From: Marichromatium purpuratum 984
GTDB lineage: Bacteria > Pseudomonadota > Gammaproteobacteria > Chromatiales > Chromatiaceae
DNA: 64,000 nt
Assembly (NCBI RefSeq): GCF_000224005.2
Contig: NZ_CP007031.1
Span: forward strand, 2,509,001 to 2,573,000
Direction of reading: 5' to 3'
Each line of letters starts with the position of its first letter. Position 1 is the first letter of the stretch. Below are positions 27,629-49,363 of the stretch, piece after piece. The translations under genes and the position numbers were made by a program. The notes under the pieces were generated by a model. That model did not search any database and was not told the DNA's origin. It saw nothing but the letters and a program-made list of their open reading frames with translations.

Positions 27629-28372
27629 ATGAGCGACTGGGTCAAAGGCAGGGTAGCAGCCAAGCAGCAATGGGCCGAGGGGCTCTACAGCATGCGCTTC
27701 GAGGCAACGCTCGAACCCTTCAGCGCCGGGCAGTACATCAAGGTGGCGATGGACATCGATGGCGAGCGCGTCGGTCGTCCCTACTCGCTGGTCAACCCAC
27801 CGGGGCAGGCCGAGCCCGAGATCTATTTCAACGCCATCCCCGAAGGGCCGCTCACCCCCCGACTCTCCGACCTCGAGCCGGGCGACACCGTCTGGCTCAG
27901 CGCGCGCGCCAGCGGCATCTTCACCCTCGATACCGTGCAACCGGCCAAGACACTGTGGCTGCTCGCCACCGGCACCGCGCTCGGGGTCTATCTCTCGATC
28001 CTGCGCACCGCCACGCCCTGGGAACAGTTCGAGCGCGTGGTCCTGGTCCACGGCGTACGCCAGCCGAGCGACCTCACCTATGGCGACACCCTCGCCGAGA
28101 TCGTCGCGCACCATGGCGAGCGCTTCACCTTCATCCCCGCGATCAGCCGCGCCGAGGCCCCGGACGCGCTCTATGGCCGCATCACCGACCTGCTGGTCTC
28201 GGGCACCCTGGAGGCACGCGCCGGCGCCACCATCACTCCCGAGGACAGCCACGTCATGCTCTGCGGCAACTCGGCGATGATCAAGGAATCCAAGGCGATC
28301 CTCGAATCACGCGGACTCGAACGCCACCGCCGCCACGCCCCGGGGCAGTACACCACCGAGCAGTATCATTGA
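27629..28372 (+). CDS. fpr: Ferredoxin-NADP+ reductase
   Basis: A 247-residue FAD enzyme of the bacterial ferredoxin/flavodoxin-NADP+ reductase type. The FAD-binding RPYSLVNPPG is near residue 50, the NADP-binding LLATGTALGVYLSILR near 110-130, and VMLCGNSAMI near 210. The C-terminus ends HAPGQYTTEQYH, close to the short C-terminus of the Fpr subclass. It links NADPH with ferredoxins in redox balance or oxidative-stress defence. The start at 27629 is supported by GAGGAG eight bases upstream; in-frame sequence further upstream is non-coding in character. The stop lies just before repeat B. Confidence 0.92.
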   Translation: MSDWVKGRVAAKQQWAEGLYSMRFEATLEPFSAGQYIKVAMDIDGERVGRPYSLVNPPGQAEPEIYFNAIPEGPLTPRLSDLEPGDTVWLSARASGIFTLDTVQPAKTLWLLATGTALGVYLSILRTATPWEQFERVVLVHGVRQPSDLTYGDTLAEIVAHHGERFTFIPAISRAEAPDALYGRITDLLVSGTLEARAGATITPEDSHVMLCGNSAMIKESKAILESRGLERHRRHAPGQYTTEQYH

Positions 28373-28809
28373 GGGCAGCGAGCAGCTGCCAGCGATCAGC
28401 CACCAGCTTCCAGTCACTCGGCGGCTGGCGGCTGCTTTGAACCGCAAAGACGCGAAGGACACGAAGGCTTTTTCAGCCATCAGCGACCAGCCGTCGGCCT
28501 CCAACGCAACACCTTGCTCACAGGCAGCGCCAGCTGGCGACTGGCGGCTGATAGCTGGCGGCTGGCGGCTGGCGGCTGGCGGCTGATAGCTGGCGACTGG
28601 CGACTGGCGACTGGCGACTGATTTGAACCACAAAGACGCGAAGGACACGAAGGTTTTTTCAGCCATCAGCGACCAGCCGACGGCCGCCGGCACAAGACTT
28701 TGCTCACAGGCAGCGCCGACTGGCGGCTGATAGCTGGCGGCTGACGACTGACGGCTGGCCGCTGAAAAGTAGCTAGCAGCTCACAACCGACCGCTCCCCT
28801 CCCTCATCA
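28373..28809. repeat. Dispersed repeat B: two tandem core-heptamer units
   Basis: Two direct units, beginning TTTGAACCGCAAAGACGCG at 28436 and TTTGAACCACAAAGACGCG at 28622. Each continues with ACACGAAGG, TTTTTCAGCCATCAGCGACCAG, a variable part, TTGCTCACAGGCAGCGCC, and irregular CTGGCGG/CTGGCGA heptamers with CTGATAG spacers. A third, inverted core copy (TTCGCGTCCTTCGCGCC, from 28813) overlaps the 3' end of the PAP2 gene. No gene is present between 28373 and 28809. The family is the same as at 13144-13518 and 36080-36333. Confidence 0.85.
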
Positions 28810-36079: not shown

Positions 36080-36333
36080 CAGCCTCCCCGACTGGAGGCT
36101 GGAAGCTGATCGCTGGAAGCTGGTTTGAACCACGAAGGCGCCAAGGGCGCAAAGGGGAATAAGCCGCCAGCGACCAGCCGCCAGTAGGTGCGGACCCGCA
36201 TCGCTTGTGGCCTCCCGCCGACATCACACATCATTCACTTTGCGTGCTTCGCGGCTTTGCGGTTCAATCCTGGCGACTGGCGACTGGCGACTGGCGACTG
36301 GCGACTGGCGACTGGCGACTGGCGACTGGCGAC
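36080..36333. repeat. Dispersed repeat C: inverted core pair with nine heptamers
   Basis: A core beginning TTTGAACCACGAAGGCG (36124) and an inverted core (CTTTGCGTGCTTCGCGG, from about 36238 to 36270) are separated by about 80 bases. Nine perfect TGGCGAC heptamers follow at 36271-36333. Unlike the repeat A array the heptamer sequence is TGGCGAC, not TGGCGGC. The HDOD-GGDEF gene's stop codon begins 4 bases beyond the array. The remainder of 35943-36079 holds nothing I recognise. Confidence 0.85.
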
Positions 36334-36336
36334 TCC

Positions 36337-38325
36337 CTACTCCATCCAGGCTGCGACCACGCGATTGCGACCCGTTTCCTTGGCGCGATAGAGGGCGCGG
36401 TCGGCGGCGGCGATCAACGCCTTGGGACTCGCTTGGGCGGAGTCGTAGAGCGCTACCCCGATGCTGGCGGTCAGGGCATGGCCGGGGAAGCGTTCACCGA
36501 GAAGCTGGCCTCGACGCTCGATCTGGTGGCGGATGCGCTCGGCATAGTTGAGCGCCCCGCTGCCACCGGTGTCGTGGAGCACGAAGAGGAACTCCTCGCC
36601 ACCGTAGCGGGCGAGGAAATCGCTCGGTCGGGTCAGCCCGCGCATGGTGTCGGCGACGATCCGCAGCACGTCATCGCCGGTTTGGTGGCCGAAACGGTCG
36701 TTGAAATCCTTGAAACGGTCGATATCGAGCAACCCCAGGGCGAACCCGCGCCCCGACTCGGCGCTCTGGGCGAAAGTGCTGTCGAGGTACTCGTCGATCA
36801 CGCTGCGATTGTGCAACAGGGTGAGCGCATCGATCTGCGCCCGGGTCCGCTCGCGGGCGAAGGTCTGACTGCGTTCGATCGCGATCCCCAACTCGCCGGC
36901 GACCAGTCCCACCTCTTCGAGCAGACGCAGGGGAAACGGCTGTTCGCCGCCGAGCCACAACACCCCGAGGATGCGACCATTGCCCAGCACCGGCACCGCA
37001 GCGGCCTGCTTCAGCCCGAGCCGATCGAGTAGCGGCAGGTTCTCCGGCGTATTCGGCACCAGTACCGGCTGGCGCGCTCGCAGCGCGCGCACCAGATCAC
37101 CGGAGAGCATCGGAATGCTCAGCTCGATCGGCTCGGCCTCGCGCATCAGCAACGCCCGTGGCAGAGCGTGAGTGGTCACCAGGCTGCGACGGCGCGCCTT
37201 GATCTGCATCATCAGCAGCTGGTCGATGCCGAACTCGGCGCGCAACGCCTCCAGGGTGGAGGGAATGAACTCGTCGGGTTCCAGGCTGTGATGCGGCGCG
37301 GTATGGCTGCTGCGTCCACCGTGCGGCAGCGGTGGCGCATCATGGCGACACAGCCCGATGGCGGTGTTCACCATGTTCGCGCGCAACTGCATCACCGAAG
37401 GGAAGCGGACCCCGTAGAAGCCGCCGATCTCGCCCACCTCGCGATCGGCTTGGGCGAGCAGCTCGGCCAGATCGAGCTGGTCGAGCGCGATCAGCGCCGG
37501 GACCTCGGGCGCGAGCAGCGGACAGCCGACCAGATCGACCGAACCGATCCCCTGGGTCCAGGCGATGAAGTCGGCCAAGGAGACGATCGCCACCTCGCGC
37601 GCGCGCTCAACGTCGAGACCACTGTCGGCGATCGCACAATGGTGCAGCGACTGCACCCGGCAGATCAGCTCCGGCAGATCCCAGTCTGCGCACACCACCG
37701 CGCCGACCTGATCGTGCGAGACTCCGAAGAAGGTCTGCTCGTCGTCGCGGATGGGGTTACCCGAGTTGGTCACCGCGGCGAGGAAATCGCTGTAACGCAC
37801 CCGGCCGTGCGACTCGAGGATCACCTTGCCGAGATCGTGCAGCAGCCCGGCGGCATAGAGCGCGTCGGGGTCGGGGTGGCCGACGCGCTCACCGATGCTG
37901 CGGCTGAGGATGGCGACCAGCAGACAGTGCTGCCAGAAGTAGACGCGATCGAACCCCCCCTGCCCGCCGCGCCCCACCATGCCCTCGAAGAACAGCGCGT
38001 GCAGCGCTGCCTGACGGACCGCCGAAAAGCCCAGCAGAGTGACCGCGCGCGAGATCGAGCGGATACGTCGGGGAAAGCCGTAGAAGGCGGAGTTGACGAC
38101 CTGCAGCACCTTGGCGGTGAGCGCGGGCTCGGTCTCGATCACCCGCGAGATGGCGGCGATATCGCTGCTCTCGTCGTTGGTCAGACGCAGCAGCTTGACC
38201 GCCGCTGCCGGTGCCGGCGGCAACTCGCTGACATCACCGCGCAGGGCCGTGCGCACCGCCCGCGCGGTCCACTCGGGATCATCCATGCAGCGCCGGCCCC
38301 GTATCGCAAAATCGGCTGGAGACAT
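36337..38325 (-). CDS. HDOD-GAF-GGDEF diguanylate cyclase-like protein
   Basis: A 662-residue three-domain signalling protein. An HDOD domain lies at about 20-270 (LPPAPAAAVKLLRL, VNSAFYGFPRRI, LLHDLGKVILESH), a GAF-like domain at about 320-470 (LVPNTPENLPLLDRLG, AAAVPVLGNGRILGVLWLGG), and a GGDEF domain from about 490 with the active motif RYGGEEF near 573. The intact GGEEF signature suggests it makes cyclic di-GMP. The GAF domain would sense a small ligand. Start at 38325 (MSPADFA) or 38286 (MDDPEW). Its stop abuts the heptamer array. Confidence 0.87.
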   Translation of the reverse strand: MSPADFAIRGRRCMDDPEWTARAVRTALRGDVSELPPAPAAAVKLLRLTNDESSDIAAISRVIETEPALTAKVLQVVNSAFYGFPRRIRSISRAVTLLGFSAVRQAALHALFFEGMVGRGGQGGFDRVYFWQHCLLVAILSRSIGERVGHPDPDALYAAGLLHDLGKVILESHGRVRYSDFLAAVTNSGNPIRDDEQTFFGVSHDQVGAVVCADWDLPELICRVQSLHHCAIADSGLDVERAREVAIVSLADFIAWTQGIGSVDLVGCPLLAPEVPALIALDQLDLAELLAQADREVGEIGGFYGVRFPSVMQLRANMVNTAIGLCRHDAPPLPHGGRSSHTAPHHSLEPDEFIPSTLEALRAEFGIDQLLMMQIKARRRSLVTTHALPRALLMREAEPIELSIPMLSGDLVRALRARQPVLVPNTPENLPLLDRLGLKQAAAVPVLGNGRILGVLWLGGEQPFPLRLLEEVGLVAGELGIAIERSQTFARERTRAQIDALTLLHNRSVIDEYLDSTFAQSAESGRGFALGLLDIDRFKDFNDRFGHQTGDDVLRIVADTMRGLTRPSDFLARYGGEEFLFVLHDTGGSGALNYAERIRHQIERRGQLLGERFPGHALTASIGVALYDSAQASPKALIAAADRALYRAKETGRNRVVAAWME

Positions 38326-38678
38326 CGAATCATCTCTATCCTTGGCGCGCCCACCGCCTGCCGGAGGCCTGATGGACACTATTCCTGCTCAACCACAGCA
38401 TAATCACGCACTGGACTCCATCCCTGAAAGACCAGCATCGCATGACTGGCAACGAAAGCGGCACAGTATACCGGGCGTTGACGCCCGAGGAACTCCGGCG
38501 AGCGGCAACAGCATCGGAAGCCCCGCCGAGCGGCAACGTTCCGACGCACCTTATCGTGGTCTAGCCGAGATGCGAATGACTGACAAGCTTATCCGACGTA
38601 CCCCGAGACCAGCCCGCGACGCGCGAGCACCGTCGGCGAACCGCCGATCGGACAACCATGCCATCCATCCGCCAACCA
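38326..38678. other. Intergenic region between HDOD-GGDEF gene and CRISPR array
   Basis: A 353-base gap. It would hold the promoter of the leftward HDOD-GAF-GGDEF gene and the trailer end of the CRISPR array. I see no gene with supporting features; the reading frames that cross it run into the array. Confidence 0.5.
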
Positions 38679-39269
38679 CAACGAAGCCCTCCCGAGGGAG
38701 GGATGAGTGCTCCACACACCGTGCCTAACGGCAATCCGGCATCCTACAACGAAGCCCTCCTGCGGGAGGGATGAGTCGCGTCCAGGGTGTTGATGGTTTC
38801 GACGCGAGCAGCCCTTCAACGAAGCCCTCCCGCGGGAGGGATGAGTCGTGGCGGATGCCGCCGTCGGCGAGTTCGAGCGCCTCCTTCAACGAAGCCCTCC
38901 CGCGGGAGGGATGAGTCGTTCGATGTCACTGAAATACTTCAAGTTTTGCTCCCTCCTTCAACGAAGCCCTCCCGCGGGAGGGATGAGTCGCGAGCACGCT
39001 GGTTCGGTTGATAGCGGTGCTCAGCCTTCAACGAAGCCCTCCCGCGGGAGGGATGAGTCCCGAACGCGAGGATGAGCAGGAGGGCGCTAGGGATCCTTCA
39101 ACGAAGCCCTCCCGCGGGAGGGATGAGTCGCGAGGCCGCGCCCACGGCCACCCCCAACGTGGTCCTTCAACGAAGCCCTCCCGCGGGAGGGATGAGTCCA
39201 GCGAGGCCGCGCCCACAGCGACCCCGAGCGTGGTCCTTCAACGAAGCCCTCCCGCGGGAGGGATGAGTC
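38679..39269 (-). CRISPR. Type I-G CRISPR array, nine repeats, eight spacers
   Basis: Nine repeats with a spacing of 68-72 bases. The plus-strand consensus starts CCTTCAACGAAG, has the perfect palindrome CCCTCCCGCGGGAGGG, and ends ATGAGTC (35 bases). CAACG anchors lie at 38679, 38747, 38817, 38887, 38959, 39029, 39099, 39168 and 39239. Spacers are about 34-38 bases. The leftmost two repeats are degenerate (CCCGAGGG and CCTGCGGG), and the rightmost seven are identical, so the leader is on the right, beside the cas genes, and the crRNA is read on the minus strand. Two adjacent spacers (39130-39163 and 39199-39234) are nearly identical. Confidence 0.97.
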
Positions 39270-39434
39270 TGCGTGTCTTCAAGTCGCCACGCAGCCAGGA
39301 AAAAACTCCCGATTTTCGCGAACTCCTGGGTAAATCGACGCAAACGCTCGTTCGAGATCGAATCAAATCGCACAAGTCTTTGTTTCGTAAAACAACCTGA
39401 TCTGCGTGAACCTCCCAGGGTTTTGCCGGTCACT
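39270..39434 (-). promoter_or_regulatory. CRISPR leader region
   Basis: A 165-base stretch between the last identical repeat and the csb3 stop. It is AT-richer than its surroundings, with TTTTACGAAACAAAGAC and GATTTGATTCGATC on the minus strand, and has no gene. Its position next to the least diverged repeats identifies it as the leader, containing the crRNA promoter. Confidence 0.72.
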
Positions 39435-40241
39435 TCAGGTTCGCGCAACAGCGGGGCGCGCCCAGCCGAGCACCTTGCCGAACTTGCCGCCACTGAGCAA
39501 GGCCGCTGACCAGTAGGTGACCCCCAGCGCCTCGCGCTCCCGATGCGCCAACCGCTCACCGCCCAGGATCAGCGCGCGCAACATCTCGCACCCGACCCAC
39601 TCGGCACAGACCGGATAGCGCCACTCCCGGGGTGACATGCCGACGGTGCGCCCGTTGACCATCGGCCACAGCGGCAACGATTCCCAGGCCAGCCAATAGG
39701 CCCCGGCGACGCCGAACTTGGGGGTGCTGGAGACATCGCGAGGCGAGGCTGCGGGGTCGATCCGCGCCGCCGCGTCCCAACCCCAGGCAATCACCTTGTC
39801 GGCGTAGCGCCAGGGACCGAACAGCGCCTCTTGGAGCGCGGCACCGACATCATCACGCCGAGCCAGCGCAGCCATGACATCGCGCGCATTGGCGACGAAG
39901 CGATGCCGCCCCCCGAGCAGCAGCAGGCCGGTATCACGAACACCGTCCGCACGCTCGGCGGCATAGGCCGCCAGCCACTCGGACGGGATCTCCTCGGACA
40001 GGCGCCGGAACCCTTCGACACCTCCGATATTGTTGTCGCGCGGATCATCCAGCCGGGTGTGTTCCGGCGCGGCCAGTCGCGCCGGCAGCAGCGCCGCCAG
40101 GCGTGCGACGGGATCGCCCTCGCACTCCAGCTCGGGATGCACATCGCGCCAGCGCAGGCGTGCCTCGGGCAGCAGGCGCAGGACACCGTAGGCGGCCATC
40201 ACCGCCACCGGATTATTCGCTCGTAGCGCCGTCAGTCGCAC
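39435..40241 (-). CDS. csb3: CRISPR-associated Csb3/Csx17-like subunit (Cas8-type)
   Basis: A 268-residue protein in the position of the Cas8-like large subunit. Its start RLTALRANNPVAVMAAYGVL resembles the N-terminus of Csb3/Csx17 proteins of type I-G, which open with a similar L-x-x-x-x-P-x-x-x-x-A-Y-G-V-L-R-L pattern. The rest has no motif I recognise. The start is a GTG at 40241: a GAGGAGG site lies 7 bases upstream and the frame overlaps the end of cas3 by 10 bases. The long frame to 40391 is an antisense-like extension over cas3. In the complex it would help recognise the target and open the DNA duplex. Confidence 0.72.
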   Translation of the reverse strand: MRLTALRANNPVAVMAAYGVLRLLPEARLRWRDVHPELECEGDPVARLAALLPARLAAPEHTRLDDPRDNNIGGVEGFRRLSEEIPSEWLAAYAAERADGVRDTGLLLLGGRHRFVANARDVMAALARRDDVGAALQEALFGPWRYADKVIAWGWDAAARIDPAASPRDVSSTPKFGVAGAYWLAWESLPLWPMVNGRTVGMSPREWRYPVCAEWVGCEMLRALILGGERLAHREREALGVTYWSAALLSGGKFGKVLGWARPAVART

Positions 40242-42655
40242 CGCTGTTCCTCCTCGCTCACGCTCCAATCGGCCAGCCGCAACAAGGCCTCCAGATAAGC
40301 TAGCCCCCAGGGGCCGAACCGTCGTTGCAGCGTCGCGAACACCTCGGGCCAGTCGTCGAGGCGGTGCCACAGCGCGGGGTCCGGCGCGCACGGCAGCAGA
40401 GGCCGACCGTGGCCGTGATGGGCACCGACGAGATGACGCAGCAGCGGCTCGCGCTGCCGCGCCGCCGAGGCCATCTCGTGTCGCCAGCCACGCGGCAGCG
40501 TCAACCAGCCGTGATCGCCCCCCGGCCCCTTGGCCAGTGGGGTGTCGATGTCACCGCCGACCACCGCCTGCCAACGCGGATCGGCCTTGCCGAGATCATG
40601 GCCGCAGCCCGCCCGACGCAGCACGTCGACCAGCTCACCATCGAGCCCGACACCACGGGCGAACGCCTCCGCCCGCGCGCCGACCGTGCCCGAATGGTCG
40701 GCCAGCGCCACGGGTCTGAATGCGCCGTCGCTGCTCCAGGCCGACTCGGCCAGCACCACGCAGCCGCGTGCATGGGCGAGCACTCGCCCCGGTCGTTGCA
40801 GCCCGGCCCGACGCGCCAGCGCCCGCCACTGTTCGGTGGTGGTCGTCTCGGCGTCGAGCAATGCCAGGATCTCCTCGGCCAGCTCGGGATGGACCTTGGG
40901 GTGGAGCCGTACCCGCCGCTCGCCGTCACCGAGATCGACCACCGTGGCCGAGGAATCGGGCGCCCAGCCATAACGGTCGCAGCCACCGACCTCGGGGGAC
41001 AGGACCAGGGTATCGCCGACGCGTACCTCGGTGATCGACACCCGGCTGACCGTCTCGCCATCCCAACGCCACAGCGGCCTCCCCCACCGCTCGGTGTCTC
41101 TCGGGTGCTGCGCCGATACCGTGCCCTCGACATCGGCGATGTCGGCATTCCATCGACGCAGCGCATGGAGGGGAACGGCCAACAGCTCGTGGCGTATCGG
41201 CGGCGCCAGGCGCAGCGCAGCGCTCGGGTCGGGATCGGCCAGCTCGGCGCGCCAGCAGAGATAGACGTCCGGCGTCCCGCGCTCCCAGCCGTGCAGCCAG
41301 GGAGCGACCTCGACCCCGTGGGGGATGCCAGTACGCGAGAGCATCTCGACATGAGCATCGAGCAGCAACGGCGAGGCCGGCGCGGACTCCTCCGGGGGTG
41401 GCTCGGCGTCCATCAGCGCCGCCATCGTCACCAGCCCGAAGTCGACATGCTTGGGCTTGCCACTGGCAACCTTCGAGAGCCAGCGCCAGGCATCGTCGAC
41501 GGCCGGGCCGTACACCGGATCGTGCTTGTCCAGTCGATGGACGATGGCCATCGGCGCGGAACCCAGCGCCCCGACCCGGTTGAGCCGCCCGGCGCGCTGA
41601 CGCAGCGCCGAGAGCGGCGCGCACTCGGTCACCAAGGCGTCGAGATCGAGGTCGGCGCCGACCTCGATGGTCTGGGTGGCCACCACGTAGAGCGGCGCGC
41701 GCCCCGCCTCGCGACGACCCACCGCGATGCGTGGCAGAGTCGTCTCCAGCAAGGCGGCGCGATCGCCGGGGCGCACCCGACCGGTCAGCAGCACCGCCTC
41801 GTCCTCGGCATGCAGCGCCTCGAACACCGCGCGCGCCCGCGCCACCTGGTTGCAGACCACGCCGATCACCCCGGCCCCCGCCGCCCGCATCGCCCGCGCC
41901 TCGGTGACGAGCGCCCGCTCACGCCGCGCGTCCTTGCGCAACTTCACCAACCGCGCCGGCTTGGCGCCACGCAGCCGCGAGGCGAGCACCGGGTGCGCAA
42001 GATCGGCGTCGGTGAGCCCGTGTGTGCGCTCGCCCGTCCAGGTCGCGGACATCACCAGCACCCGCCAGGGCAACGTGATCGCCTCCCCGCGCAGCGCCTG
42101 GATATGCGCGAGCGTGCGCAGGAAGGGCTGCGCCAGATGCACCTCGTCGAGCACGAACAGCACATCGTTGCCGAGCAGCCCGGCATGGATCGGCGCCGAC
42201 CGGGGCGAGACGCCGTAGCCGGAGAACAGCAACCGCGAGCCGACCTGATCGATGGTGGAGACGAGCACCGCGGGGCGTCGCGGATCGGCCAGCCAGTCCT
42301 CGTCGATGGTGATGCCGCCGCGTAGCCGGGCGAGCCCGGGGCGATCGGACACCGGCAGGGAATCGATCAGCCGCTCGACATAATCACCGACCCCGTCGAC
42401 CACCAGCCGTCGGTCGATGACATAGACCAGGCGGCGCGGCACCACGCCGTGGCCGCGCAGCCGCGCCCACAGCCAGACGTCGACGATCGCGGTCTTGCCG
42501 CACCCGGTCGGCGCGCTCAACGCCTCGGGCCAGTCGCCGGCGGCGACACGCGCGGCGAGGGCCGACTGCCAGGGAAAGGGCGGATAGCCGTGGCGTTGCC
42601 GGTACCAGCGATCGAAGTCGGCCGACTCGGCGGTCTGCTCGCGCGTCGTGGTCAT
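40232..42655 (-). CDS. cas3: CRISPR helicase-nuclease Cas3 (C-terminal HD)
   Basis: An 807-residue Cas3. The helicase core has PTGCGKT at 49-55, DEVH at 170-173, an SAT-like VMSATW and the motif VI QRAGRLNRVG. The HD nuclease domain is at the C-terminus: HDLGKADPRW at about 686, a HEMAS segment, and AHHGHGRP. Type I-G Cas3 proteins have this helicase-then-HD order, the reverse of most type I enzymes. It would unwind and degrade invader DNA recognised by the Cascade complex. Its start overlaps the csb2 stop (ATGA) and it is followed by csb3 with a 10-base overlap. Confidence 0.93.
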   Translation of the reverse strand: MTTTREQTAESADFDRWYRQRHGYPPFPWQSALAARVAAGDWPEALSAPTGCGKTAIVDVWLWARLRGHGVVPRRLVYVIDRRLVVDGVGDYVERLIDSLPVSDRPGLARLRGGITIDEDWLADPRRPAVLVSTIDQVGSRLLFSGYGVSPRSAPIHAGLLGNDVLFVLDEVHLAQPFLRTLAHIQALRGEAITLPWRVLVMSATWTGERTHGLTDADLAHPVLASRLRGAKPARLVKLRKDARRERALVTEARAMRAAGAGVIGVVCNQVARARAVFEALHAEDEAVLLTGRVRPGDRAALLETTLPRIAVGRREAGRAPLYVVATQTIEVGADLDLDALVTECAPLSALRQRAGRLNRVGALGSAPMAIVHRLDKHDPVYGPAVDDAWRWLSKVASGKPKHVDFGLVTMAALMDAEPPPEESAPASPLLLDAHVEMLSRTGIPHGVEVAPWLHGWERGTPDVYLCWRAELADPDPSAALRLAPPIRHELLAVPLHALRRWNADIADVEGTVSAQHPRDTERWGRPLWRWDGETVSRVSITEVRVGDTLVLSPEVGGCDRYGWAPDSSATVVDLGDGERRVRLHPKVHPELAEEILALLDAETTTTEQWRALARRAGLQRPGRVLAHARGCVVLAESAWSSDGAFRPVALADHSGTVGARAEAFARGVGLDGELVDVLRRAGCGHDLGKADPRWQAVVGGDIDTPLAKGPGGDHGWLTLPRGWRHEMASAARQREPLLRHLVGAHHGHGRPLLPCAPDPALWHRLDDWPEVFATLQRRFGPWGLAYLEALLRLADWSVSEEEQRCD

Positions 42656-43923
42656 GCCCCGTCCTCCGGTCGCATCAGCCCCATGCCGAAGTGACGCTCG
42701 CGCCCGATCAGCAGCGGCCCGGCGACGGCGCGATCGAACCCCAGCGCCACATGCATCCAGCGATGGCGGCCACGCGGGCGGAAGTCGCGGGCGACCGGCA
42801 CGCCGATGAACGGCCCCTGCTGACCGACCCGCACCTCGATCGGACGCGGGTAGCCGGCCATCTCCACCGAGTCGGCGATCAGCCGTTCCACCGCCTCCCC
42901 CTTCTTGGGATGACGGTCGAGCACCACCGGGGTGACGCTCGCCCAACGGGTCGCGGCACGCGCCCAGGTGGCGCGGTGCAGACCGGCCGGCGGCGGCCGA
43001 TGCGCGGGCTGTCGCGACAGCTCGACCCGCATCCCGTCGACCTGGAGATGGCGCACCCCAGCGAGCGCCAGGGCGCACTGGGCACGCGCGTCCTCGTCGA
43101 TCCCACGCGGCAACCACAGCCCCAATCCCAACACCTGACCACGCGCATGCCGATGACCGACGTGCGGCAGCACGCACCAGGCGGCGTGGGCACCGTCGTG
43201 TCCGTGCAGTAACGGTGAGGCGTCATCGCCGGCGATGCTCAGCACCGCGGCCCGCAGCGCCGCGGCGAGCCGGGCGGCACGGCGGATGGAGAGTTCACGC
43301 CCCGGTCGCAGTACCAGCAGCTCACCCCAGGGCGAGGGCCGACGACGCACGCGCGAATCGGCGTAGGCCACCAGCGGTGCGATCGGTGCTCGCAGCCCGG
43401 CCTCGAAGGCCGCGTCGAGTTCGTCCAACCGCCCTTGCTGGGGCACACGCAGGAATCGATCACCGTCGGCGTCCGGCACCAGGCGCCGGGGCAGCTCCGG
43501 CGGCTCATCGAGCACCGTGCACGAAACCGGGCTCTTGGCTCGCCCGAGATAATCGACCTCGGCGGCAATCGCCGCGATCGGCGCACGCAACTCGGCGGGC
43601 ACACCCGGCCAGCACATCACCACCGGATCGCGAATCTCGACCATGCAGGGGTCGTACTTGGCCACCCGGGTCTGCTTGGCCTTGTAGGCGGCCGGCACAT
43701 AGAGGGTGCCATGACGCGCGCGCCGCGCCGGGCCGAAGCGCAACTCCGGCGCCACCCCCTCGAGTGCACGTAGCGGCGCGGGGTCCTGACCGCTCTCGTA
43801 GGCACCGGCAACCAACCCTTGAAAGGTCCGATCCACCGCCAGGGGCCACTCCGGCTCGCTCGGCGCCATCGGGTCGGCGGCGTGGTAGCACCCGTTGAGT
43901 AAATCCATCTGCAGCGTCAGCAT
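42652..43923 (-). CDS. csb2: CRISPR-associated Csb2 (Cas5-Cas6 fusion)
   Basis: A 423-residue protein of the GSU0054/Csb2 family, a marker of type I-G. The N-terminal half would form the Cas5-like part (LQMDLLNGCYHAADP, then a basic RVRRRPSPWGELLVLRPG). The C-terminal half ends with the Gly-rich loop LIGRERHFGMGLMRP, like the G-loop of Cas6 endonucleases, so it would process the crRNA and bind its 5' handle. HAARH-type His residues in VGHRHARGQ could take part in catalysis. Its start is one base after the csb1 stop. Confidence 0.88.
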   Translation of the reverse strand: MLTLQMDLLNGCYHAADPMAPSEPEWPLAVDRTFQGLVAGAYESGQDPAPLRALEGVAPELRFGPARRARHGTLYVPAAYKAKQTRVAKYDPCMVEIRDPVVMCWPGVPAELRAPIAAIAAEVDYLGRAKSPVSCTVLDEPPELPRRLVPDADGDRFLRVPQQGRLDELDAAFEAGLRAPIAPLVAYADSRVRRRPSPWGELLVLRPGRELSIRRAARLAAALRAAVLSIAGDDASPLLHGHDGAHAAWCVLPHVGHRHARGQVLGLGLWLPRGIDEDARAQCALALAGVRHLQVDGMRVELSRQPAHRPPPAGLHRATWARAATRWASVTPVVLDRHPKKGEAVERLIADSVEMAGYPRPIEVRVGQQGPFIGVPVARDFRPRGRHRWMHVALGFDRAVAGPLLIGRERHFGMGLMRPEDGA

Positions 43924-43924
43924 G

Positions 43925-45022
43925 CTAGCGACTCCGCGCGATGAGCTGTTCCAGGTTGGGGCCGGGGGCGAAGGTCACCGGCGCGGCCAGCGCAACCGCC
44001 TCGCGCGCCGCGCGCAACGCCTCCAGCGCCGTCGCCCGGGTGATCGTCAGCGGCGTCGCCTCGGACGACCCGGTGACAGGGATCGACCAGTGCACCTCGG
44101 TGGCGACCAGCTCGCAGTCACGCCGCAGATCGAGCCCATCCTCCAGTACGGCGGCAACCCCGTAGACGCCCATGCAGGCGAGCAGGGTTCGCGCGGCCAC
44201 ATTGGTGGCCTCGTCCTCCCCGAAGCGATACCGGCGCAGCCGCGACAGGCTGAGCACGCCATTGAGCGCGATCGAGTCGACCAGCACGCCCTTGGGCTTC
44301 AGGGTCGGGGCGATATTGCCGTGGTTGATCTCAGAGGGACGCTTGGTCGCGGCACCGCTCGGCGCCTGCTCGCCCTCGGGCAGCAGCTGATAATCGGTCT
44401 CCCCCGCCTCGTGGAGGATGGTCGCAACATCGCTGGGGATGCCCAGGGGGTCGAGCCTGCCGCCAGCGCGCGCCACCGGGCGCGCCCCGGCGCCGGCGAT
44501 CTCGACACTGAGCGCCGCCGCCCACTTCCGCTCCCGCCCGCCGCGACGCCCCAACCGGGTGGAATCCCAGCCACCAAGCAGTAACACCGCCGGGTCATGA
44601 CGCAACAGCCCCGTCGCATCGACCGGGGAGGCGCCGAACACCGCCCGGCCGATCTCGGTGTCTTCGAAACGGGTGCCATTGAGCTGTGAGTCGCGGAGGA
44701 TGGCGTCGAAGGCGCGATGCGGCATCTGCAGCGTCGACAGGTGCGTGCCATCGGGCAGTTGCACCGCCACGGGGGCTAGGTCCAGACCACAGCGCAGCAG
44801 CTGTTCCTCGACCCGGTTGGCGAACGAGGCGGCGCTGTCGATGCTGACCCAGGCGGCGACCCCGTGCTCGTCCGGCTGGGTCATGTTGTGACCATGGGGC
44901 GCATCGGCATAGGTCGGCGGCAGGATGTGATGCCCCCCGTTGAGCGGGCTGAGCTTGGCGTTGATACGCAGACCGGGGGACGCCTGTACGGCTTGACGCA
45001 TGGTGGACAACAAATCGGTCAC
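43925..45022 (-). CDS. csb1: CRISPR-associated Csb1 (Cas7)
   Basis: A 365-residue Cas7-type backbone protein of the GSU0053/Csb1 family, which coats the crRNA in the effector complex. Typical parts are LRINAKLSPLNGGHHILPPT near the start, the SIDSAASFANRVEEQLL region, the LLLGGWDSTRLGRRGG region and KRPSEINHGNIAPTL. The start is a GTG at 45022 with AGGAGGGA just upstream. It leads the operon csb1-csb2-cas3-csb3. Csb1 is the first gene after the AT-rich promoter region. Confidence 0.9.
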   Translation of the reverse strand: MTDLLSTMRQAVQASPGLRINAKLSPLNGGHHILPPTYADAPHGHNMTQPDEHGVAAWVSIDSAASFANRVEEQLLRCGLDLAPVAVQLPDGTHLSTLQMPHRAFDAILRDSQLNGTRFEDTEIGRAVFGASPVDATGLLRHDPAVLLLGGWDSTRLGRRGGRERKWAAALSVEIAGAGARPVARAGGRLDPLGIPSDVATILHEAGETDYQLLPEGEQAPSGAATKRPSEINHGNIAPTLKPKGVLVDSIALNGVLSLSRLRRYRFGEDEATNVAARTLLACMGVYGVAAVLEDGLDLRRDCELVATEVHWSIPVTGSSEATPLTITRATALEALRAAREAVALAAPVTFAPGPNLEQLIARSR

Positions 45023-48262: not shown

Positions 48263-49363
48263 TCAGGGTCGGAAGGTAAAGGTGAATTCACGGAACTGGT
48301 CGAAGAGTGCCCCGGTGGGCACCGGTAGCGGCTCGGCGCGCCACAGCGCGGCGAGCGCTGCCTGATCGAAGGCCGGGGTGCCGCTGGAGCGCTGCATCGC
48401 CACGCTCCCCGGGACGATGTAACCCGCCGAGGTCACCCGCACCTCGAACTCCACGCTCAACCCCTCGGACATACCGGGCGGATAGGCGAAGTGCTGGCGG
48501 ACACGATCGCCGATCGCGCCCTTGTAGTAATCGACCTGGCGCTGCTCGGCGCTGCTCAGCCCGCCACCACCGCCGCCGGCGACGACCGGCGACGATCGGC
48601 GTGCGGTCTCGGCCGCCTCGGCCTCGAGTCGCTCGGCCTCGCGCGCGATCTCGTCCTCGAATCGCTGCTGCTCGAGTGCGGCCATCTGCTCGGCCTCGCG
48701 CGCGATGCGCTCCTGGCGCGCCGCAGCGGCCTGGCGTTCCGCCTCACGGCGTGCGGCCTCTTCGGCAGCGCGACGCTCAGCCTCGGCACGGGCTGCGGCG
48801 GCCTGACGTTCGGCCTCGCGACGGGCGGCCTCCTCGGCAGCGCGACGCTCAGCCTCGGCACGGGCTGCGGCGGCCTGACGCTCGGCCTCGCGACGGGCGG
48901 CCTCCTCGGCGGCGCGACGTTCAGCCTCGGCGCGGGCCGCGGCGGCCTGACGCTCGGCCTCGCGGCGGGCGGCCTCTTCGGCGGCGCGACGCTCGGCCTC
49001 GGCACGAGCCGCGGCGGCCTGACGCTCGGCCTCGCGACGGGCGGCCTCCTCGGCGGCGCGACGCTCAGCCTCGGCACGAGCCGCAGCGGCCTGACGCTCG
49101 GCCTCGCGGCGGGCGGCTTCCTCGGCGGCGCGGCGCTCGGCCTCGGCGCGCGCCTCGGGATCGAGCCGTTCGCGCACCTCCTGGACACGGGCGCTCAGTG
49201 CCGGATCGCCGAGCACGCTGGCCTGGACCACGCGCGGGCGATCGCCGCCGTTGCTCGCGTCCTGGGTGAAGCGCACGCCGACGAACAGCAGCAGCGCGAA
49301 CAGCAGATGCAGCCCCAGCGACCAGTAGAGCGCCCCGGGGTCACGCCGCAGGATCTGCAACAT
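48263..49363 (-). CDS. tolA: Tol-Pal membrane protein TolA with six 24-residue repeats
   Basis: A 366-residue inner-membrane protein: one N-terminal membrane helix (about 13-30), a long helical arm, and a C-terminal domain (about 270-366) with a TonB-like end. The arm carries six identical tandem 24-residue units of the pattern AEAERRAAEEAARREAERQA plus AAAR (residues about 73-216), encoded by a 72-base repeat. The arm spans the periplasm and links TolQR to Pal. It starts 3 bases after tolR. Confidence 0.95.
   Translation of the reverse strand: MLQILRRDPGALYWSLGLHLLFALLLFVGVRFTQDASNGGDRPRVVQASVLGDPALSARVQEVRERLDPEARAEAERRAAEEAARREAERQAAAARAEAERRAAEEAARREAERQAAAARAEAERRAAEEAARREAERQAAAARAEAERRAAEEAARREAERQAAAARAEAERRAAEEAARREAERQAAAARAEAERRAAEEAARREAERQAAAARQERIAREAEQMAALEQQRFEDEIAREAERLEAEAAETARRSSPVVAGGGGGGLSSAEQRQVDYYKGAIGDRVRQHFAYPPGMSEGLSVEFEVRVTSAGYIVPGSVAMQRSSGTPAFDQAALAALWRAEPLPVPTGALFDQFREFTFTFRP

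What the first reader, a model, noticed from the sequence alone, without database searches (positions are those of the whole stretch)
39130..39234. Two adjacent spacers differ only by synonymous changes
Spacer 7 (39130-39163) and spacer 8 (39199-39234) align over 34 bases with four mismatches. On the crRNA strand both read in one frame as TTLGVAVGAAS, and all four mismatches (TTG/CTC, GTG/GTC, GCC/GCT) keep the amino acid; the next frame changes residues (for example TGG against TCG). This points to two separate acquisitions from the same gene in two related mobile elements, not to one spacer mutated after copying. It also names the target: a protein-coding gene, likely hydrophobic or tail-like, in a phage or plasmid family that attacks this lineage repeatedly.
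Basis: partly seen in the sequence, partly recalled or inferred. Interest (0 to 1): 0.78.

Follow-up and report, generated by a model that had tools for sequence, protein, structure and literature searches.

The report
Twin CRISPR memories of related invaders
A bacterium's two newest CRISPR memory entries are near-copies that differ only by changes leaving the encoded protein the same, most likely because it was attacked by two related viruses or plasmids; this is neat but ordinary CRISPR behaviour, and the invader itself was not found.

Summary
Spacers 7 and 8 (39130-39163, 39199-39234) agree at 30 of 34 positions, and all four differences are silent in one crRNA-strand frame, TTLGVAVGAAS. 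They are the two newest spacers of a type I-G array. Four random changes are silent in at least one of six frames about 5% of the time, so silence alone is modest evidence.

Other results favour two separate acquisitions. Both spacers start at the same base on the side where this array's PAM (TTN) lies, but differ in length (34, 36). Among 167 spacers in five arrays, every other similar full-length pair is an exact copy. A codon model prefers the proposed frame by 3-4 ln units.

The target was not found in the own genome, 145 other family genomes, phage and plasmid records, IMG/VR or GTDB contigs. A phage tape-measure gene is a lead that did not clearly beat its control. Other spacers of the array do have targets: spacer 2 trbE of transfer plasmids, spacer 3 phage tape-measure genes. 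Verdict: real, ordinary CRISPR memory of two related elements.

The parts
39199..39234 (-). Spacer 8, the newest (leader-proximal); reads TTLGVAVGAASL in frame 0 of the crRNA strand
39130..39163 (-). Spacer 7, second newest; reads TTLGVAVGAAS in frame 0; four silent differences from spacer 8
38675..39269 (-). CRISPR array: nine 35-nt repeats (seven identical, the two at the left end degenerate) and eight spacers of 33-37 nt
39270..39440 (-). Leader side of the array, alignable with the same place in congener G027
38778..38812 (-). Spacer 2; matches trbE of three plasmids at 31-33 of 35, TTC beside each
38848..38882 (-). Spacer 3; matches tape-measure genes of three phages (30-31 of 35) and of a prophage in G075 (30 of 35), TTC or TTG beside each
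38710..38742 (-). Spacer 1, the oldest; the same spacer survives in G075 (2 of 33 differ) and, strongly changed, in G027 (14 of 33 differ)
39435..40391 (-). cas8g (ORF as listed; the true start is probably further inside)
   Evidence: PADLOC Cas8g, E 1.8e-25; no Pfam match
40232..43177 (-). cas3g (ORF as listed; the match covers residues 183-978)
   Evidence: PADLOC Cas3g, E 3.6e-227; HD-domain models match near the C-terminus
42652..43923 (-). csb2 (cas5-cas6 fusion of type I-G)
   Evidence: Pfam Cas_GSU0054; PADLOC Cas56g, E 2.3e-123
43925..45022 (-). csb1 (cas7g)
   Evidence: Pfam Cas_GSU0053; PADLOC Cas7g; 95% identical in G027

Best explanation
Spacers 7 and 8 are two independent memories of one site in homologous protein-coding genes of two related mobile elements. 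Each element carried a TTN PAM at the same place (inferred), so both captures were cut at the same base on the PAM side and at slightly different bases on the far side (34 and 36 nt). The two genes had diverged here only at silent positions. One difference, at crRNA position 7, lies in the usual seed (positions 1-8), so guide 7 would probably act poorly on the second element, and a second spacer was worth keeping. Shown: the sequences; the order (8 is newer); the silent pattern; the shared PAM-side end; the TTN PAM of other spacers of this array; that comparable duplicate spacers are exact. Inferred: the two elements, their PAMs, the gene and its frame, and the protection that each spacer gives.
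For: 30/34 identity, all four differences silent in frame 0. Codon model: frame 0 beats the next frame by 3-4 ln units and the best neutral fit by 2-4. G or C at 11/11 and 11/12 third positions of frame 0. Both spacers begin at the same base on the 5' (PAM) side; 9 of 10 convincing protospacers of this array type have TTN there, and in both sense-strand cases the TTC is an in-frame codon. Of 167 spacers in five arrays, the other similar full-length pairs are exact copies: three adjacent in the L117 array, two adjacent in G027. The oldest spacer changed at 2 of 33 bases between this genome and G075, whose flanking DNA is 92.5% identical, so 4 of 34 would be much drift for the newest spacers.
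Against: No protospacer was found for either spacer. Silence in some frame arises by chance in about 5% of pairs. The two spacers are adjacent, as duplicates are. The same oldest spacer differs at 14 of 33 bases in G027, so spacers can drift far. An antisense frame with one conservative change is nearly as good on third positions for spacer 7 (10/10 G or C).
Confidence: 0.82

Rival explanations
1. One repeat-spacer unit was duplicated inside the array and one copy then drifted by four substitutions and a 2-nt length change.
For: The two spacers are adjacent, and unit duplications do occur in these arrays (L117 spacers 52-54, G027 spacers 10-11). The oldest spacer differs at 14 of 33 bases between this genome and G027.
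Against: Those duplicates are exact in sequence and length. The pair is at the newest end. Seven repeats, including those around the pair, are identical, though repeats may be under selection. Drift would be silent in frame 0 about 1% of the time and in any frame about 5%. It also needs a 2-nt change exactly at the spacer-repeat border.
Confidence: 0.08
2. Both spacers come from one element that carries two diverged copies (paralogues or an internal repeat) of the gene.
For: Nothing in the array separates this from two elements; two spacers from one visit would naturally be adjacent. One I-E pair of this genome (15 and 29) overlaps by 22/22 on opposite strands, so repeated capture from one region does happen.
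Against: Two copies in one element that keep 11 residues identical with only silent change are less usual than homologous genes in two relatives (inference). The only repeat-type match seen, a 90-bp repeat of 12 copies in G081, has no TTN and matches spacer 8 at 26-27 of 36.
Confidence: 0.06
3. The pair comes from related elements, but the site is read in the antisense frame (EAAPTATPNV/EAAPTATPSV) or is non-coding.
For: Silence in some frame is expected in about 5% of random four-change pairs; the antisense frame has one conservative change.
Against: The codon model disfavours the antisense frame by 3-4 ln units and the best neutral fit by 2-4.
Confidence: 0.04

Closest known systems
Repeated and near-identical spacers in Bifidobacterium lactis type I-E and I-G arrays (PMC12915315; passages seen)
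   Same: Arrays hold repeated spacers, some identical and some differing by a few nucleotides; the authors sort them by differences in seed positions 1-8.
   Different: [quoted passage not shown] in the passages seen there is no codon-level argument. PAM there is TAT.
Repeated capture of one protospacer (Legionella type I-C, PMC5071653; 'pink berry' Desulfofustis spacers, PMC10370329; passages seen)
   Same: Independently acquired spacers that target the same protospacer; in the pink-berry case, in two related phages.
   Different: There the target elements are known; here they are not, and the two spacers differ at silent positions.
Type I-G effector of Thioalkalivibrio sulfidiphilus (PMC9638904; passages seen)
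   Same: Csb1/Cas7, Csb2 (Cas5-Cas6), Cas8g and Cas3; TTN PAM reported for type I-G.
   Different: That locus has cas4-1 nearby; no cas1 was found beside this one.

Membership tests
Type I-G (I-U) CRISPR-Cas | Effector set Cas7g, Csb2 (Cas5-Cas6), Cas8g, Cas3g | tested here: met
   All four match their families in one minus-strand operon
Type I-G (I-U) CRISPR-Cas | TTN PAM on the 5' side | tested here: met
   TTC or TTG at 9 places (spacer 2 in 3 plasmids, spacer 3 in 3 phages and 1 prophage, G027 spacer 6 in 2 prophages); TCT at 1 place (G027 spacer 17, 35/35). Weaker matches without TTN: G027 spacer 32 (28/34) and three places of G027 spacer 16 (24/33), taken as chance
Type I-G (I-U) CRISPR-Cas | Adaptation module (often a Cas4-Cas1 fusion) beside the effector genes; a usual companion, not what defines the subtype (recalled) | tested here: not met
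   The three Cas1 matches of this genome lie outside the window, in open frames of 323-355 aa; cas2 and cas4 were not searched
Array-unit duplication | The two spacers are identical | tested here: not met
   4 of 34 positions differ and the lengths differ
Array-unit duplication | The two units are adjacent | tested here: met
Independent acquisition of one site from two related elements | Same PAM-side end, changes that keep the protein | tested here: met
Independent acquisition of one site from two related elements | Each spacer matches its own element, with a PAM | tested here: inconclusive
   No protospacer found
Spacer against a phage tape-measure gene | Protospacer lies in such a gene | tested here: inconclusive
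   Similar peptides in tape-measure proteins in 5 of 30 long ORFs against 1 of 13 in the control. Closest: TALGVAVGAASV in L161, with no TTN. L082 has TTG beside TTLGLALGAVAL, but only 22 of 34 bases match spacer 7, and that pattern itself required TTN

The most novel reading that the evidence does not exclude
Spacer 8 is an update of spacer 7 made by priming. A relative of the first invader, silently diverged with a mismatch in the seed (position 7), escaped cutting but was still recognised weakly, and this triggered capture of the very same site anew. As no cas1 lies beside this locus, the capture would have been done in trans by one of the other Cas1 modules of the genome.
Probability: 0.15. 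Interest if true: 0.5.

Novelty: new member of a known kind. Interest (0 to 1): 0.3.

Why it matters
Two spacers that differ only at silent positions give codon-level evidence of a target gene and its frame even when the invader is unsequenced, and they help to tell repeated infection from array duplication. Here the pair suggests that this lineage met at least two relatives of one element and that the second met a guide mismatched in its seed. The gain is modest: the event itself is ordinary CRISPR memory.

Tried and rejected
Target searches. Codon-degenerate TTLGVAVGAA in viral contigs: 0 hits. The two-spacer pattern with up to 3 mismatches: only the array itself in the own genome and in 146 family genomes including the own one. 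blastn of each spacer against phages and plasmids: nothing convincing, best E 2e-2 (capped listings). TTLGVAVGAA in GTDB contigs: 5 loci, none with TTN; two look like dipeptide-type ABC permeases by eye, no family search made. Relaxed patterns in viral contigs: 1 locus, 21 loci, none with TTN; and 58 loci, 6 of 85 rows with TTN but only 17-19 bases of 34 or 36 matching. A last scan of all 299 loci held found 18 rows outside the array with 26-28 bases matching, none with TTN.

Rejected lead: G027:C56:37757-37787 matches spacer 8 at 90% but with a gap and without TTN. Other weak matches of the array query were not opened one by one; those whose loci were returned are covered, the rest are not. 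The G081 matches are a 90-bp repeat.

Tape-measure lead: before counting I dropped redundant contexts and ORFs under 200 aa (28 to 11, 58 to 19, control 68 to 13). 5 of 30 against 1 of 13 is no clear difference. A search for one tape-measure family (phrog_339) in 156 family genomes matched 23; the 27 loci returned held no close peptide, best TALGAAIGAAFS.

Papers: none on silent-difference spacer pairs appeared in the listings (capped lists); passages only were seen of the papers. PMC6547450 is not held.

Full report
WHAT IS THERE. The stretch 38675-39269 holds nine 35-nt repeats and eight spacers of 33-37 nt. Seven repeats are identical; the two at the left end are degenerate, which marks the old (trailer) end. 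To the right of 39269 lies a stretch alignable with the same place in a congener, G027: the leader side. The genes further right on the minus strand match cas7g, cas5-cas6, cas3g and cas8g, the type I-G set. So the crRNA is on the minus strand, and spacers 8 and 7 are the newest two.

THE PAIR. Read as crRNA the two spacers agree at 30 of 34 positions, with differences at positions 7, 9, 15 and 18, all silent in frame 0, TTLGVAVGAAS. For unrelated spacers such agreement has a chance of about 3e-13. Both begin at the same base on the 5' side and end 2 bases apart.

HOW STRONG IS SILENCE? Four random changes leave frame 0 unchanged in about 1.1% of simulations and at least one of six frames unchanged in about 5%. 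A codon model with omega 0.05-0.2 prefers frame 0 over the next frame (antisense, one N/S change) by 3-4 ln units, and over the best neutral fit (omega 1) by 2-4. Third positions in frame 0 are G or C in 11/11 and 11/12 codons; but the antisense frame of spacer 7 scores 10/10. This is moderate evidence.

PAM. Protospacers came from this array and from the congener's array of 32 spacers. Spacer 2 matches trbE of three plasmids at 31-33 of 35, two typed as conjugative and one as mobilizable, with TTC beside each. Spacer 3 matches annotated tape-measure genes of three phages at 30-31 of 35 and a tape-measure gene in a G075 prophage at 30 of 35, with TTC or TTG. G027 spacer 6 matches a capsid-like gene (by eye, recalled) in G075 at 35/35 and in G131 at 30/35, both with TTC. 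That is TTN at 9 places. At one place it is not: G027 spacer 17 matches the window's own genome at 35/35 with TCT. Weaker matches without TTN (G027 spacer 32 at 28/34; spacer 16 at 24/33 in three places) I took as chance. TTN is the PAM reported for type I-G (PMC9638904, passage). In both sense-strand cases the TTC is an in-frame codon, as it would be for frame 0 here.

COPY OR SEPARATE CAPTURE? I compared 167 spacers of five arrays: I-G, two arrays that I call I-C and I-E from their repeats (recalled), and the L117 array, all of this genome, and I-G of G027. Copies exist and are exact: L117 spacers 52-54 and G027 spacers 10-11. The 7/8 pair is the only similar full-length pair that is not identical. 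One more pair, I-E 15 and 29, overlaps by 22/22 on opposite strands. As a clock, the oldest spacer survives in three species: 2 of 33 bases differ between this genome and G075, whose flank is 92.5% identical, but 14 of 33 differ from G027. So 4 of 34 differences at the newest end would be much drift, though the G027 value shows that spacers can drift further. Adjacency is the one feature that fits copying better.

TARGET. Not found: own genome, 145 other family genomes, phage and plasmid records, IMG/VR and GTDB contigs gave no convincing protospacer, and no place with 26 or more matching bases in the 299 loci held has TTN beside it, the array aside. Relaxed peptide searches returned several tape-measure proteins, for example TALGVAVGAASV in L161, but 5 of 30 long ORFs is not clearly above the control, 1 of 13. 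I put a tape-measure gene at about 0.3.

MECHANISM. Best reading: two captures of one PAM-defined site from homologous genes of two related elements. The difference at position 7 lies in the seed as defined in PMC12915315 (positions 1-8; passage), so the older guide would probably be weak against the second element. No cas1 lies beside this locus; the genome's three Cas1 matches lie elsewhere. Capture would then be in trans, or came before a loss; this is inference.

NOVELTY. Repeated and near-identical spacers, and repeated capture of one protospacer, are in print (passages). The silent pattern is a clean example, not a new kind.

Noticed in passing
L107 (G075:C6, about 118224-118350) against 38645-38774: G075 keeps a fossil of this array at the same chromosomal place (degenerate repeats and the oldest spacer, 2 of 33 bases changed) but has no Cas7g match in its genome: the I-G locus seems ancestral in the genus and lost there.
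   Followed up: partly
L069 (G000:C1:1221408-1221442): A spacer of the congener G027 matches the window's own genome perfectly (35/35) in a region with single-strand-binding-protein-like, RusA-like and terminase-like ORFs (by eye), probably a prophage; the neighbouring bases are TCT, not TTN.
   Followed up: partly
38778-38812 and 38848-38882: One small array holds a spacer against trbE of transfer plasmids (spacer 2) and one against phage tape-measure genes (spacer 3), so it guards against both plasmids and phages.
   Followed up: yes
L116, L117, L118 (G000 near 2.92, 1.29 and 1.60 Mb): Three further arrays of 33, 66 and 31 repeats lie near Cas1 genes of this genome; L117 holds one spacer three times in a row, and two I-E spacers overlap by 22 bases on opposite strands.
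   Followed up: partly
39435-45022: The I-G effector operon has no cas1 beside it, here or on the G027 contig.
   Followed up: partly
36205-36350 and about 28307-28693: Short tandem repeats that read LATGDWRLATGDW and SRQPPAISRQSP in the ORF list, of the kind found in small intergenic repeats.
   Followed up: no
48263-49363: An ORF beside a tolB-like gene holds a long tandem repeat (AEAERRAAEEAARREAERQAAAAR...), TolA-like by eye.
   Followed up: no
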